DNA of 64,000 bases from Halorussus salinus (GTDB taxonomy: Archaea > Halobacteriota > Halobacteria > Halobacteriales > Haladaptataceae): positions 1,156,927 to 1,220,926 of the forward strand of contig NZ_ML974127.1 in assembly GCF_004765815.2 (NCBI RefSeq), written 5' to 3'. Under the pieces are notes generated by a model that was not told the origin of the DNA, made no database searches, and saw only the letters and a program-made list of their open reading frames with translations. A program made the position numbers and the translations under genes. Below are positions 35,596 to 47,038 of this stretch, piece after piece; within the stretch, counting starts at the first letter, position 1; each line of letters opens with the position of its first letter.

Positions 35596-35620
35596 TGGCG
35601 GGAGTTTGGCGATAGATTGG

Positions 35621-35627
35621 CTTAAAT
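35621..35627 (-). promoter_or_regulatory. TATA-like box of the winged-helix regulator
   Basis: ATTTAAG on the minus strand, 26-32 bases before ATG 35595. Confidence 0.55.
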
Positions 35628-35740
35628 GCGACGAACCGAACAACCCACTGCGCGAAATCGCGGGGTTCGGACCGCCGACACGTCGGCTTCGTTCGGCGAG
35701 GAGCGACAGCGATTTGACGGTGGCGGAGGTGCAACCGGAT

Positions 35741-36664
35741 ATGCAAGGGAAACGAGTCCTCGTCACCGGCGGCGCGGGCTTCATCGGGTCGAACTTGGCG
35801 AACCATCTCGCCGACGACAACGACGTTCTCGCGGTGGACGACTGCTATCTCGGCACGCCCGAGAATCTGGACGAGGAGGTCGAGTTCCACGACGTGAGCG
35901 TGCTGGACGACGACTTGCCGACCGAGGAGGTAGACGTACTCTTTCACCTCGCGGCGCTGTCGTCGTACCCCATGCACGAGGAGGACCCGACGAAGGGCGC
36001 GCGCGTCAACGTCGAGGGGTTCGTCAACACGGTCGAGCAGGTCCGAGAGGACGGCTGTGACACCGTGGTCTACGCCTCGACTTCGTCCATCTACGGCGAC
36101 CGGACCGAACCCTCGCCCGAGGAGATGGACGTGACCGCCCGGACCGGCTACGAGGCCTCGAAGCTCGCGCGGGAACGCTACGGCGAGTACTTCGCGTACC
36201 ACTACGACATGAACATGGCCGGGATGCGGTTTTTCAGCGTCTACGAGGGTTTCGGCGGTGCGGAGGAACACAAAGACGAGTACGCCAACCTCATCGCGCA
36301 GTTCGCCGACGACCTCGCGAACGGCGAGGCTCCTGTCATCTACGGCGACGGCACCCAGACGCGGGACTTCACTCACGTCTCGGACATCGCTCGCGGCCTC
36401 GAACTCGCCGCGGACCACGAACTCACCGGCATCTACAACCTCGGGACCGGCGAGTCCTACAGTCTGAACACGCTGGTCGAGCGACTCAACGACGCGTTGG
36501 GCACCGACATCGAACCGGAGTACGTCGAGAACCCGATTCCCGAGAAAGTGTACGTCCACGACACGATGGCGGACTCCTCGAAAATGAAGGAAGCGACCGG
36601 GTGGGAACCGGAGATTAGCTTCGGCGAGGGTCTGAAGCGCGTCTGTTCGTACTACGAGGAGTAA
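35741..36664 (+). CDS. NAD-dependent sugar epimerase/dehydratase (extended SDR, GalE-like)
   Basis: 307 residues from ATG 35741. The Rossmann motif GGAGFIGSNL is at residues 10-19, the catalytic STSSIYGD and Y-E-A-S-K (Tyr-x-x-x-Lys) are near 113-150, and RDFTHVSDIARG is near 208. These fit UDP-glucose 4-epimerase-type enzymes that reshape nucleotide sugars for surface glycoconjugates or S-layer N-glycans. The exact nucleotide sugar cannot be read. Divergent from the winged-helix regulator (146-base gap). Confidence 0.88.
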   Translation: MQGKRVLVTGGAGFIGSNLANHLADDNDVLAVDDCYLGTPENLDEEVEFHDVSVLDDDLPTEEVDVLFHLAALSSYPMHEEDPTKGARVNVEGFVNTVEQVREDGCDTVVYASTSSIYGDRTEPSPEEMDVTARTGYEASKLARERYGEYFAYHYDMNMAGMRFFSVYEGFGGAEEHKDEYANLIAQFADDLANGEAPVIYGDGTQTRDFTHVSDIARGLELAADHELTGIYNLGTGESYSLNTLVERLNDALGTDIEPEYVENPIPEKVYVHDTMADSSKMKEATGWEPEISFGEGLKRVCSYYEE

Positions 36665-36688
36665 CTCCGGTTCGACGTTCTCGATCGT

Positions 36689-36940
36689 TTATTCGAAAAG
36701 AGAGGATTTGTTGACGAGATAGCTCAAAAAGAAAAAGAGAGCGAAGATAGCGACGTACCTCGTGAGCGTAGTCATAATCCGAGAGAATCCGAACAGTTCT
36801 ATCCAAACGAGACTCAGTACCCACGACACGAGGAAGCCGAGTATCACCGAGGCGACGGCGACGAACCCCTGCAGTCGCTTCGAGTCGTAATCAGTCGCCG
36901 CAGTCCACGCGGTGCGGAGCGGTTTGATCGAGGCGGCCAT
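36689..36940 (-). CDS. small membrane protein downstream of the halocin-like gene
   Basis: 83 residues with two membrane helices (about 25-48 and 60-77) and a basic/polar N-terminus (MAASIKPLRTAWTAATDYDSK). It lies 98 bases after the halocin C8-like gene on the same strand, within the same AT-richer stretch. Its small size and place suggest an accessory such as immunity or export helper, but no family is recognised and this is inference. TATA-like sequence TATAATATG sits immediately before the start. Confidence 0.6.
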   Translation of the reverse strand: MAASIKPLRTAWTAATDYDSKRLQGFVAVASVILGFLVSWVLSLVWIELFGFSRIMTTLTRYVAIFALFFFLSYLVNKSSLFE

Positions 36941-37038
36941 ATTATATCGTTATAGACGAGTGAGGAAAATAGTTTGGCTCATCGACAGCTCGTTTTCTTC
37001 GACCGTGTCAGAACGCCCTAAAGTAGTTCGATTGAACT

Positions 37039-37908
37039 CTAGGCACTAGTGACGCAGTCGACGACACAATCGCGCGAACTCACGAGTGCAGTACAACCTG
37101 TCCAGATGTCAGCAATACTGATACAGCCCGTGCCGATGGCGCACGCAATGGTTGCTGCTGGCCCTCCGAGTGACGTACCGAGACACAGCGAGCAGACGCC
37201 CAGTTGGTTGAGGCAGAGGACTACGTTAGCGAACACTACACCACAGTCACACGAGGCGGTTCGGACTCCGTCTCCTCCGTTCGCGTCGATGACCTCGTGA
37301 CTGACGACCTCTAGTCCCGGCGTAGATGAAGCGGCCGTGACGCCTCGTTCGACTCGGAATATCTCGACCGTTTCGCTGGAGGCGTTAGCCTCAATTACTC
37401 GGAAGCCATCCATTTCGGACGTTGTGGACACGGTGATCTCCGTGGCATCTTTTCCGATGGCCGCGGCGACTCTTTCGGTTTCCGCGTCGGTAGCGCCGCG
37501 GACGAAGACGGCTCCATCTTCTGCTCCGTAGAGTTTAGCATCCGTACCGCGCGGCCAATCCACGTCGAAATTCGGTCTGTAATTCTTGAAATCGAAGACG
37601 ACTTCGAACTCGCTATCCGCGAACTCAACGACGTTTAGTGTCCCAAAGTTAGCTGGAATCTCCGTGTGGGTAACGAATGTCGGGTCTTCTTCGGGTCCGG
37701 CCGCGACAGTCTTTGCACGCTGGTCTTGTAGTTGAAGATCAGGTAGTGCGTCTTGGATTGATCGTACTTTTTCTGTCGAAAGGAGTGAATCGATGTCAGT
37801 AGTAACTTCCGAAGCCGACGCCGACCCTGACATTCCGAGAGCGAGAACTCCGCTTACGCCCACTTTTTTGAGTACACTTCTTCTCTTGACTTGGTCTTCG
37901 TTGACCAT
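37039..37908 (-). CDS. halocin C8-like bacteriocin precursor (Tat-exported proprotein with Cys-rich C-terminus)
   Basis: 289 residues. Residues 1-33 are a Tat signal (KRRSVLKKVGVSGVLALG, then SGSASAS). The middle (about 34-218) is an acidic proregion without cysteines. The last 71 residues (37042-37254) are hydrophobic and contain ten cysteines (pairs C-D-C and CSLC among them), with very few charges. This is the layout of the halocin C8 precursor: Tat signal, an N-terminal part that becomes the immunity protein HalI, and a C-terminal peptide of about 76 residues with ten cysteines. Ribosomal synthesis with later cleavage is inferred. Base composition is lower in GC than its neighbours, suggesting recent acquisition. 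Confidence 0.8.
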   Translation of the reverse strand: MVNEDQVKRRSVLKKVGVSGVLALGMSGSASASEVTTDIDSLLSTEKVRSIQDALPDLQLQDQRAKTVAAGPEEDPTFVTHTEIPANFGTLNVVEFADSEFEVVFDFKNYRPNFDVDWPRGTDAKLYGAEDGAVFVRGATDAETERVAAAIGKDATEITVSTTSEMDGFRVIEANASSETVEIFRVERGVTAASSTPGLEVVSHEVIDANGGDGVRTASCDCGVVFANVVLCLNQLGVCSLCLGTSLGGPAATIACAIGTGCISIADIWTGCTALVSSRDCVVDCVTSA

Positions 37909-37927
37909 ATTTTCTCTATCATTTGCT

Positions 37928-37937
37928 TTTATTAAAG
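37928..37937 (-). promoter_or_regulatory. TATA-like box of the halocin-like gene
   Basis: CTTTAATAAA on the minus strand, about 20-29 bases before ATG 37908, in a very AT-rich leader that extends to about 38050. A second AT-rich element (ATATATTG) lies a few bases further upstream. Confidence 0.5.
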
Positions 37938-38107
37938 TTTTCCCAATATATTTATTTGTATTTTTAATACGGTATTTTCACGTAGTATCCGAGTCGAAGC
38001 ATGGAACAATTACGTAACTGATCTCCTATTTAAATACAAGAATATTTGTTATTCTGTCGGAACAGTCCAAACCGAGCCGATACCATAACAGATGAAAATC
38101 ACGTCTT

Positions 38108-38114
38108 CTTTATC
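38108..38114 (+). promoter_or_regulatory. TATA-like box of the arginase gene
   Basis: CTTTATC, 23-29 bases before ATG 38137; favours that ATG over the in-frame start at 38092. Confidence 0.55.
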
Positions 38115-38136
38115 ACACCCCCTCGAACTCGCTCGT

Positions 38137-39057
38137 ATGAACGAACAGGTGCGAATCATCGGCGTCCCGATGGACCTCGGCGCGGACCGACGCGGCGTGG
38201 ACATGGGGTCGTCTACCATCCGATACGCCGGACTCGCCGACGAACTCGACGCGCTCGGTCTCGACGTGACCGACGTGGGCGACCTGCCGGTCCCCCGCGC
38301 CGAGGAGCGCGACCCCGAGGCCGAGGCTCCCAGCGAGGGGAACGCCAAGTTCCTCCGCGAGACCGCCGACGTGTGTACGCGCCTCGCCGACGAGGTGGCC
38401 GACGCCATCGACGCCGGGCAGTTCCCGCTCGTCCTCGGCGGCGACCACTCCATCGCCATCGGGACCGCGAGGGGCGCGGCCCGCGACGCCGACCTCGGCG
38501 TGGTCTGGTTCGACGCCCACGGCGACTTCAACACGCCCAAAACGTCACCGTCGGGTAACGTCCACGGGATGCCGCTGGCGGCACTCCTCGGTATCGGCGA
38601 CTTCGCCGACACCGAGTGGGCCAACGCCCCGACCATCAGCGAGGAGAACGTCGCGCTGGTCGGTCTCCGGCGACTGGACGACGACGAGCGCCGGGCCATC
38701 CGCGAGAGCGACGTGACCGCCTACACCATGTCGGACATCGACGAGCGCGGCGTCACGCCGGTCGTCGAGGACGCGCTGGACGTAGCGACCGACGGCACCG
38801 ACGGCATCCACGTCAGCCTCGACATGGACTGGCTCGACCCGAAGGAAGCGCCCGGCGTCGGGACGCCGGTCCGGGGCGGCGTGAGCTACCGGGAGGCCCA
38901 CTCCGCGCTGGAGACGGTCGCCGAGCGCGACGAGACGGAAGGTATCCTCCGGTCGCTGGAGGTCGTGGAAGTCAACGCCATCTTGGACGAACACAACGAG
39001 ACCGCCGAGTTGGCGACCGAACTGGCCGCGAGCGGTCTCGGGAAGCGGATTCTGTAG
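38137..39057 (+). CDS. rocF: arginase
   Basis: 306 residues from ATG 38137 (MNEQVRIIGVPMDLGADRRG). The binuclear manganese site of the ureohydrolase family is complete: GGDHSIAIG (about 110-118), DAHGDFNTP (about 133-141) and the SLDMDWLDP motif (about 226-234). The N-terminal GVPMDLGADRRGVDMG is typical of arginases rather than agmatinases. It hydrolyses arginine to ornithine and urea in the cytoplasm. It stands alone with its own promoter; no ornithine aminotransferase is adjacent. Confidence 0.9.
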   Translation: MNEQVRIIGVPMDLGADRRGVDMGSSTIRYAGLADELDALGLDVTDVGDLPVPRAEERDPEAEAPSEGNAKFLRETADVCTRLADEVADAIDAGQFPLVLGGDHSIAIGTARGAARDADLGVVWFDAHGDFNTPKTSPSGNVHGMPLAALLGIGDFADTEWANAPTISEENVALVGLRRLDDDERRAIRESDVTAYTMSDIDERGVTPVVEDALDVATDGTDGIHVSLDMDWLDPKEAPGVGTPVRGGVSYREAHSALETVAERDETEGILRSLEVVEVNAILDEHNETAELATELAASGLGKRIL

Positions 39058-39874: not shown

Positions 39875-42373
39875 TTATTCGTCGGTCTCGCCAGTCTCGT
39901 CGGTCTCGGCCGCGTCGTCGCCGTTCGCGTCCGGAATCACGTCCACGGTGGCCACGCCGTCGTCGCCTTCGAGTTCCATCACTTTCACGCCCATCGTGTT
40001 CCGGCCGACCTCGGAGATGTCGGCCGCTCGGATGCGCATTATCTGGCCGCTCTCGCTCATGATGACGAGGTGGTCGGCCGGACCGACTGCCTTGACCGAC
40101 GTGACCCGCCCGTTGCGGTCGCCGGTCTTGATGTCCACGAGTCCCTTGCCGTTACGCGATTGCTTGCGGTACTCGGTGAGCGGCGTCCGCTTGCCGTAGC
40201 CGTTCTCCGTGACCGTCAGCAGGTCCTGCTCGGTGTCGTCCTCGACCGCGACCATCCCCGCGACTTTATCTTGGCCTTCGAGGTCCACGCCGCGGACGCC
40301 GCGGGCGTTGCGGCCCATCTCGCGGGCCTCGTCCTCGTCGAACCGAATCGCCATCCCCTCGCGGGTGGCGACCAGCAGGTCGGTCGAACCGTTCGTCACC
40401 TTCACGTCCACGAGTTCGTCGCCGTCCTCCAACTTCGCGGCGATGATGCCCGTCGAGAGGATGTTGTCGAACTCGGAGGCCGCGGTCCGCTTGACGTAGC
40501 CGTCGCGCGTGACCATGCTCAGACACTCCTCGTCCTCGAAGTCGTCGGTGTTGACGACCGCGGTTATCTCCTCGCCGTCGTCCAAGTCCAGCAGATTGAT
40601 GGCGGACTTACCCCGCGCGGTCCGGGACATCTCGGGAATCTCGTAGGTCTTCAGGCGGTAGACCTGCCCTTGATTGGTGAAACAGAGGAGGTAGTCGTGA
40701 GTGTTCGCTCGGAACACCTTCGACACCCGGTCGCCCTCCTTGATGTCGCCGCCGATGATGCCCTTGCCGCCGCGGTTCTGGGCGTCGAACTGCGAGACGG
40801 GCATCCGTTTCACGTAGTCCTGCTCGGTGACGACGACGACCACGTCCTCCTCGGCGATGAGGTCCTCGCGGGTCACCTCGTCGGTGTCCTCGATGAACGA
40901 GGTCCGGCGGTCGTCGTCGTACTCGTCCTTGATGGCGAGGAGTTCCTCCTCGATGACCGAGAGGAGTTCCTCCTCGTCGCCCAGAATCGTCTCCAGTCGC
41001 TCGATGCGGGCCTGCACCTCGTCGTACTCGTCCTCGATTTCGGCGGCCTCCATCGAGGTGAGACTGCCCAACTGCATCCGGACGATGTGGTCCACTTGGT
41101 CGCCGGAGAACTCGTAGGCCTCCCGGAGCGCGGCCTTCGCGTCGTCGCGGTCCTCGGCGTCTCGGATGATGTCCACCACGTCGTCGGCGTGTTCGAGCGC
41201 CGTGAGTCGGCCGTCGAGGATGTGAGCGCGGTCTTGCTTCTCGCCGAGTTCGTACTGACTGCGCCGCCGAACGACCTCCTTGCGGTGGTCGAGGTAGTGG
41301 CGCAGGGTCTCTTTCAGCGTGAGGACCTGCGGTTGGCCGTCCACCAGCGCGAGGTTGATGACGCCGAACGTCTTTTCGAGGAAGCGTTCGAGCAGTTGGT
41401 TCTTGACGACCTCCGCCATCGCGTTGCGCTTCAACTCCACGACGATGCGGATGCCGTCGCGGTCCGACTCGTCGCGCAGGTCACGGATGCCCTCGATAGC
41501 GCCGTCGTTGACCGCGTCGGCTATCTTCTCGACCATCCGGGCCTTGTTGGTCTGGTAGGGGAGTTCCGTGATGACGATGCGGTCGCTCCCGTTCTCGCGC
41601 TCCTCGACCTCGTACTCGGCGCGGACGCGGATGCGCCCCCGGCCGGTCTTGTACGCGGCGTGGACCGCGTTGTGCCCGACGATGTTCGCGCCGGTCGGGA
41701 AGTCCGGTCCCTTCACGTGGTCCATCAGGTCCTCGACGGTCGCGTCGGGATTGTCGATGAGTTCGATGGTCGCGTCGATTATCTCGCCGAGGTTGTGCGG
41801 CGGGATGTTCGTGGACATCCCGACCGCGATACCCGACGAGCCGTTGACCAGCAGGTTCGGGAACGCCGCGGGAAGCACGTCCGGTTCCTGCAGGCGGTCG
41901 TCGTAGTTGGCCGAGAAGTCCACCGTGTCCATGTCGATGTCGGACAGTAGCTCCTCGGCGATGGGGGCCATCCGGGCCTCGGTGTACCGCATCGCGGCGG
42001 GCGGGTCGCCGTCCACCGAGCCGAAGTTCCCTTGGCCGTCCACGAGAGGGTAGCGCATCGAGAAGTCTTGGGCCATCCGGACCATCGCGTCGTAGATGGG
42101 GCTGTCGCCGTGCGGGTGGTAGTTACCCATCGTCTCGCCCACGATGGACGAGGACTTCCGGTGGCTCGACCCGCTGGTGACGCCCTCCTCGTGCATCGCG
42201 TAGAGGATGCGCCGGTGGACGGGCTTGAGACCGTCGCGAACGTCGGGTAAGGCTCGACCCGCGATGACGGACATCGCGTAGTCGATGTAGCTCTGCTCCA
42301 TCTCGTCTTCGATGCGAGCGGTGTCGATACGTGCAGCGTCCACGTCTGTCGGTTCGGGTACGTCTGAACTCAT
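39875..42373 (-). CDS. gyrA: DNA gyrase subunit A
   Basis: 832 residues. The catalytic tyrosine is Tyr130 in [10 protein letters not shown], preceded by the PHRRILYAM and [19 protein letters not shown] segments of the breakage-reunion domain. The C-terminal DNA-wrapping domain carries the GyrA box as QNRGGKG (about residue 526), which confirms gyrase rather than topoisomerase IV. With GyrB it introduces negative supercoils using ATP. A long acidic tail (about 810-832) is typical of halophiles. It follows gyrB by 40 bases in the same operon. No intein in this subunit. Confidence 0.97.

Positions 42374-42413: not shown

Positions 42414-47038
<4,625 letters not shown>

What the first reader, a model, noticed from the sequence alone, without database searches (positions are those of the whole stretch)
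37039..37908. Halocin C8-like bacteriocin precursor with a ten-cysteine C-terminal peptide
The 289-residue product has a Tat signal, a cysteine-free acidic middle part and a hydrophobic last 71 residues with ten cysteines. This is the same architecture as the known halocin C8 proprotein, in which the N-terminal part gives immunity (HalI) and the C-terminal peptide is the toxin. The cysteine spacing here differs from what I remember of HalC8, so it may be a new peptide of this family. Basis: sequence layout seen; family architecture from established knowledge of halocin C8; the toxin function is inference.
Basis: partly seen in the sequence, partly recalled or inferred. Interest (0 to 1): 0.85.

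Follow-up and report, generated by a model that had tools for sequence, protein, structure and literature searches.

The report
Halocin S8-type archaeal antibiotic peptide precursor
A salt-loving archaeon carries, on a small inserted DNA piece, a gene for a secreted protein that very probably releases a short antibiotic peptide of the halocin S8 kind (not halocin C8 as first thought), next to a small membrane protein that may protect the producer.

Summary
In detail: 37039-37908 (-) encodes a 289-residue Tat-signal protein whose ten cysteines all lie in the last 70 residues. The halocin C8 reading is not supported. The tail does not match TIGR04449 (true C8 paralogues in the same genome do), resembles the C8 peptide no better than shuffled sequence, and shares only the Tat signal with C8 precursors.

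It matches halocin S8. A Halobacterium sp. GN101 plasmid protein containing the exact 36-residue S8 peptide (230+36+45 residues) aligns with it at E=1e-24, through the peptide itself. By analogy the toxin is internal, about residues 218-252, followed by a 37-residue tail, so not the whole 71-residue end.

The gene and a downstream 83-residue two-helix membrane protein gene (36689-36940) form a roughly 1.43-kb low-GC insertion between an epimerase and arginase, missing in congeners. Another genome keeps only the membrane gene there. Across 46 related precursors a small multi-helix membrane ORF follows in 26, against 15% of control genes (p=5e-9). I propose a toxin plus separate immunity protein. 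Secretion, cleavage, killing and immunity are inferred. Novelty: new member of the halocin S8 kind; the separate immunity gene would be new for haloarchaea.

The parts
37810..37908 (-). Tat signal region, residues 1-33 (KRRSVLKK); end of signal is approximate
   Evidence: sequence; RR invariant in 25 relatives; coordinates
37258..37809 (-). acidic cysteine-free propeptide domain, residues 34-217
   Evidence: conserved across the family; AF2 pLDDT block means 53-84, mostly above 62, for residues 31-160; no significant PDB fold match
37153..37257 (-). predicted halocin S8-like mature peptide, about residues 218-252, ASCDCGVVFANVVLCLNQLGVCSLCLGTSLGGPAA; ends inferred from HalS8
   Evidence: alignment with the HalS8 36-mer
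37042..37152 (-). C-terminal tail, residues 253-289 with five cysteines, probably removed as the 45-residue tail of HalS8 is
   Evidence: alignment with HalS8 precursor
36689..36940 (-). 83-aa two-helix membrane protein (P0002), candidate immunity protein
   Evidence: position 98 bp downstream; family-wide enrichment; co-inserted with precursor; retained alone in G325
36662..38095 (.). low-GC two-gene insertion between epimerase (35606-36664 +) and arginase (38092-39057 +); limits are approximate alignment boundaries
   Evidence: epimerase and arginase neighbours without either gene in congeners; GC 0.32-0.58 inside versus 0.63 and 0.69 in the flanking genes
37928..37936 (-). TATA-box-like TTTAATAAA at -28 to -20 of the precursor ATG
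   Evidence: sequence; fit to leaderless haloarchaeal promoters is from general knowledge

Best explanation
The gene encodes a halocin S8-type microhalocin precursor. It is exported by the Tat route (inferred from motif). An extracellular protease then cuts it on both sides of an internal peptide of about 35 residues with five cysteines, four at the HalS8 spacing (inferred by homology to HalS8). The hydrophobic, disulfide-bonded peptide kills or inhibits related haloarchaea that lack protection, probably at the membrane (inferred; no tool result bears on the target). The small two-helix membrane protein encoded 98 bp downstream most likely protects the producer, and the two genes came in together as a roughly 1.4-kb cassette (presence together here and joint absence in congeners shown; protective role inferred). 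Confidence is about 0.85 for 'halocin S8-type precursor', about 0.4 for P0002 as the immunity protein, and about 0.75 for the core statement 'S8-type precursor with an internal mature peptide', which is the figure given.
For: GN101 megaplasmid protein P0003 contains the exact HalS8 36-mer in a 230+36+45 layout; its computed mass of 3581 Da fits the reported 3.58 kDa (PMC8699383). P0001 versus P0003: BLASTP E=1e-24, alignment running through the peptide. Tail versus HalS8: score 86, best of 3000 shuffles 61. HalS8 precursor as query recovers this protein at 4e-20 and otherwise mainly the same small subgroup. Immunity: downstream multi-TM ORF in 26/46 precursors versus 53/345 controls (p=5e-9), upstream 8/46 versus 53/315 (p=1); down versus up in the same loci p=2e-4. 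A different 80-85-aa two-TM family is shared downstream of three S8-type precursors; HalS8 itself is followed by a four-TM protein in two plasmids. Congeners lack both genes at this site.
Against: Precursor identity to HalS8 is only 25%, and the peptide has a fifth cysteine (odd number). The tail cysteines are partly conserved in the subgroup, so the tail might stay attached by disulfides. P0002 homologues in 7 other genomes (G325 among them) and a second copy in this genome are not next to an S8-type precursor, so P0002 may be an independent gene. 20 of 46 relatives show no downstream membrane ORF by my criteria. The TM call is a simple hydropathy window. No expression or activity data.
Confidence: 0.75

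Rival explanations
1. Halocin C8-type precursor: the last about 71 residues are the toxin and the N-terminal part (HalI-like) gives immunity.
For: Same overall layout (Tat, acidic middle, ten C-terminal cysteines). C8-type paralogues do occur in this genome.
Against: No TIGR04449 match while true C8 proteins match; tail no better than shuffles against mature C8; profile match limited to the Tat region; clear S8 match instead.
Confidence: 0.06
2. S8-type toxin precursor in which immunity comes from the precursor's own N-terminal part, as for HalC8; P0002 is an unrelated passenger membrane gene.
For: HalC8 precedent of toxin and immunity from one gene (PMC3831642). P0002 relatives occur alone in several genomes and the N-terminal domain is conserved.
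Against: Family-wide, direction-specific enrichment of small membrane ORFs downstream; joint presence/absence with P0002 at this site in congeners; the N-terminal domain is not detectably homologous to HalI.
Confidence: 0.35
3. The cysteine-rich tail is a structural or redox domain that stays attached; the protein is a secreted surface protein, not a toxin.
For: Some tail cysteines beyond the S8 peptide are conserved in the subgroup. No activity data.
Against: Homology to a purified, cleaved microhalocin through the mature peptide; sporadic occurrence, on plasmids beside transposases and in close arrays; divergent tails on a shared N-terminal domain.
Confidence: 0.08

Closest known systems
Halocin S8 precursor (311 aa, Halobacterium; Price & Shand 2000, paper not held, cited from memory and through PMC12446376 and PMC8699383; sequence from NZ_EU080936.1 152216-153151)
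   Same: Tat precursor, homologous N-terminal domain, internal peptide with C-x12-C-x6-C-x2-C in S8 and C-x11-C-x6-C-x2-C here (first cysteine C3 of both), GGP near the end, cysteine-bearing C-terminal tail
   Different: 25% identity over the precursor; one extra cysteine in the peptide; shorter N-part (217 vs 230) and tail (37 vs 45); lies on a 1.6-Mb contig, not on a known megaplasmid; a different membrane gene downstream
Halocin C8 / TIGR04449
   Same: Tat, acidic middle, ten C-terminal cysteines
   Different: different cysteine spacing, no HMM match, no N-terminal homology beyond the signal
Halocin R1 (strain GN101)
   Same: reported small halocin of the strain that carries the S8-type gene found here (PMC8699383)
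   Different: R1 sequence not available to me in a held source; relation not tested
Two-gene bacteriocin and immunity systems of bacteria (pediocin-like)
   Same: separate immunity gene beside the toxin gene (PMC3831642)
   Different: no sequence relation tested or claimed; immunity by P0002 not shown

Membership tests
Halocin S8 family | homology of the precursor to the HalS8 precursor over its length | tested here: met
   BLASTP E=1e-24, 277-column alignment; 4e-20 in genome search
Halocin S8 family | recognisable internal peptide with the HalS8 cysteine spacing, flanked by N-part and C-tail | tested here: met
   score 86 vs shuffle maximum 61; four cysteines aligned; layout 217+35+37 vs 230+36+45
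Halocin S8 family | Tat signal | tested here: met
   RR motif, invariant in relatives; no dedicated signal predictor was available
Halocin S8 family | release of a heat-stable, hydrophobic about 3.6-kDa peptide with anti-haloarchaeal activity | not testable with these tools
   predicted peptide 3356 Da, GRAVY 1.30; needs mass spectrometry and assay
Halocin C8 family | match to TIGR04449 above cut-off | tested here: not met
   no match; positive controls L031, L032, L051 match
Halocin C8 family | C8 cysteine spacing C-2-C-7-C-3-C-7-C-12/13-C-7-C-8-C-8-C-5/7-C | tested here: not met
Halocin C8 family | HalI-homologous N-terminal part giving immunity | tested here: not met
   profile alignment covers only the Tat region; immunity itself not testable here

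The most novel reading that the evidence does not exclude
Halocin S8-type and related precursors work as mobile toxin-immunity cassettes in which a separate small, variable membrane protein encoded just downstream gives immunity. This would be a second immunity principle in haloarchaea beside the one-gene HalC8/HalI scheme, with orphan immunity genes in immune non-producers (G325).
Probability: 0.45. Interest if true: 0.7.

Novelty: new member of a known kind. Interest (0 to 1): 0.5.

Why it matters
Halocin S8 was described in 2000, and I found no Pfam or NCBIfam model that recognises its family (NCBIfam tested on P0003 itself; relatives). The finding links it to a larger set of secreted precursors with very different cysteine-rich ends across haloarchaea and names a testable immunity candidate. 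The only halocin immunity mechanism in the papers I read is the one-gene scheme of C8. A natural set of genomes (both genes, membrane gene only, neither gene) makes the toxin-immunity idea directly testable.

Tried and rejected
Halocin C8 membership was tested and rejected. Viral origin: phrog_23815 is a weak match to the query (3e-7), but no phage record or viral contig with a relative was found. Pfam gives nothing for the precursor; for P0002 only sub-threshold DUF7220 (0.0018) and MnhE (0.054), not used. AlphaFold with only five eligible sequences is poor (pLDDT 51) and Foldseek against PDB has no significant match, so no fold is claimed. hhalign of the P0002 family against the L009-type small protein shows no relation (5% probability). 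Family scans of genome contigs gave one named relative (Haloferax larsenii JCM 13917; the first scan found none). The profile search over 391 genomes reports 258 with hits, but most cover only the Tat signal and were not counted. Two alignments were too diverse to scan with.

Full report
Observation. The minus-strand ORF 37039-37908 is real: 289 aa, Tat-type start (KRRSVLKK), acidic cysteine-free middle, ten cysteines all in the last 70 residues. The gene has a TATA-like box at -28 and lower GC (0.55) than its neighbours (0.63 and 0.69); the 183 bp upstream are 0.32 GC.

First searches. No Pfam, NCBIfam or PDB match. In 391 haloarchaeal genomes, 25 (this one included) have a protein match at E<=0.001. 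Most hits that I translated are Tat-signal precursors of 270-380 aa with 8-12 cysteines near the C-terminus; a few hits were other or broken frames. The N-terminal domain is shared and the C-terminal part is very variable. A profile search adds more members. In the own genome only this gene matches the profile over its length; there are three separate TIGR04449 proteins.

Not halocin C8. I used the 76-residue mature C8 sequence from memory as a query; it was matched at 100% identity in one genome, so it is confirmed as a natural sequence. C8 proteins share an almost fixed cysteine spacing that differs from the query's. Profile-profile comparison aligns only 60 columns at the Tat signal. None of 25 family members hits TIGR04449, whereas the C8 controls do.

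Halocin S8. The plasmid hits were four Halobacterium records and one Natrarchaeobaculum. The GN101 protein (P0003) contains the 36-residue sequence I recalled as mature halocin S8, which is found at 100% identity in four Halobacterium plasmid records. Its position gives 230+36+45 residues, as I remember from Price & Shand 2000, a paper not held here. The computed mass of 3581 Da agrees with the 3.58 kDa given in PMC8699383. P0001 and P0003 align over 277 columns (25%, E=1e-24), through the mature peptide and the first residues of the tail. The tail against the S8 peptide scores 86, above all 3000 shuffles (maximum 61); against C8 it scores 44, matched or beaten by 736 of 3000 shuffles. P0003 as query over 381 genomes returns this protein (4e-20) and mainly the same subgroup: L002, L003, L004, L009, a copy split over two frames (G091) and a truncated one (G376); a few weaker partial hits follow. 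The predicted mature peptide is therefore about residues 218-252, 3356 Da and hydrophobic, with five cysteines. The exact ends are inferred.

Surroundings. P0002, an 83-aa protein with two predicted membrane helices, starts 98 bp after the precursor's stop. Congeners carry the flanking epimerase and arginase as neighbours with neither gene between: about 42 bp apart in G374, whose flanks are 86-91% identical in DNA. In G325, of another family, the epimerase and P0002 are kept at 83% DNA identity, but the precursor is absent and no remnant is detectable. So the two genes behave as an insertion of about 1.43 kb, and the membrane gene can persist alone. Against this, P0002 relatives in seven other genomes (G325 among them) and a second copy here are not beside an S8-type precursor.

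Family-wide test. Among 46 distinct precursors, an ORF of 50-260 aa with at least two hydrophobic helices lies within 400 bp downstream, on either strand, in 26; control genes in the same loci give 53/345 (Fisher p=5e-9). Upstream there is no excess (8/46 versus 53/315). Downstream versus upstream in the same loci gives p=2e-4. A first version limited to the same strand gave 18/55 versus 22/360; I widened it to both strands after seeing convergent membrane ORFs, so the second p-value is partly post hoc. The control genes are greedy longest ORFs, not curated genes, and the helix call is a simple hydropathy window. The S8-type precursors L009, L003 and the G091 copy, in three genera, are followed by members of one 80-85-aa two-helix family, at 0.3, 1.0 and about 1.9 kb. 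HalS8 in GN101 and in H. salinarum KBTZ03 is followed by the same four-helix protein. An orphan of the two-helix family occurs on a Halocatena plasmid beside a transposase.

Mechanism. Tat export, extracellular cleavage on both sides, and a disulfide-rich membrane-active peptide are inferred from HalS8 and from established knowledge of halocins. Extracellular serine proteases such as HlyR4 activate other haloarchaeal precursors (PMC12893001). For immunity I favour the separate membrane protein over the HalI scheme, at low to moderate confidence.

Verdict. A new, divergent member of the halocin S8 kind, with a testable candidate immunity gene.

Noticed in passing
window 42414-46127 (-): GyrB ORF of 1237 aa that appears to carry an in-frame intein (insert between VILMSVDG and [13 protein letters not shown]); gyrA follows at 39875-42373.
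   Followed up: no
L031, L032, L033 (G000 C1:154313, C4:335984, C5:223635): Three TIGR04449 halocin C8-type proteins in the same genome; L033 sits at the end of an unusually long, about 680-aa Tat protein.
   Followed up: partly
L039 / L169 (Haloferax larsenii JCM 13917 contig 17): At least four precursors of this family with different cysteine-rich ends within about 8 kb, with small multi-helix membrane ORFs nearby.
   Followed up: partly
L143 1971-2720 (-): Another Tat protein with ten cysteines and a W/C-rich tail of a different type, 2.2 kb from a P0002 relative.
   Followed up: no
L045 (G091) and L040 (G376): S8-type precursor genes that look broken: frame split in G091, truncation in G376. 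The small membrane gene is still present in G091.
   Followed up: partly
L015 (G326): A relative that matches PHROG family phrog_23815 over its full 318 positions (E=1.6e-227), suggesting a virus-borne copy, but no phage record or viral contig with it was found.
   Followed up: partly
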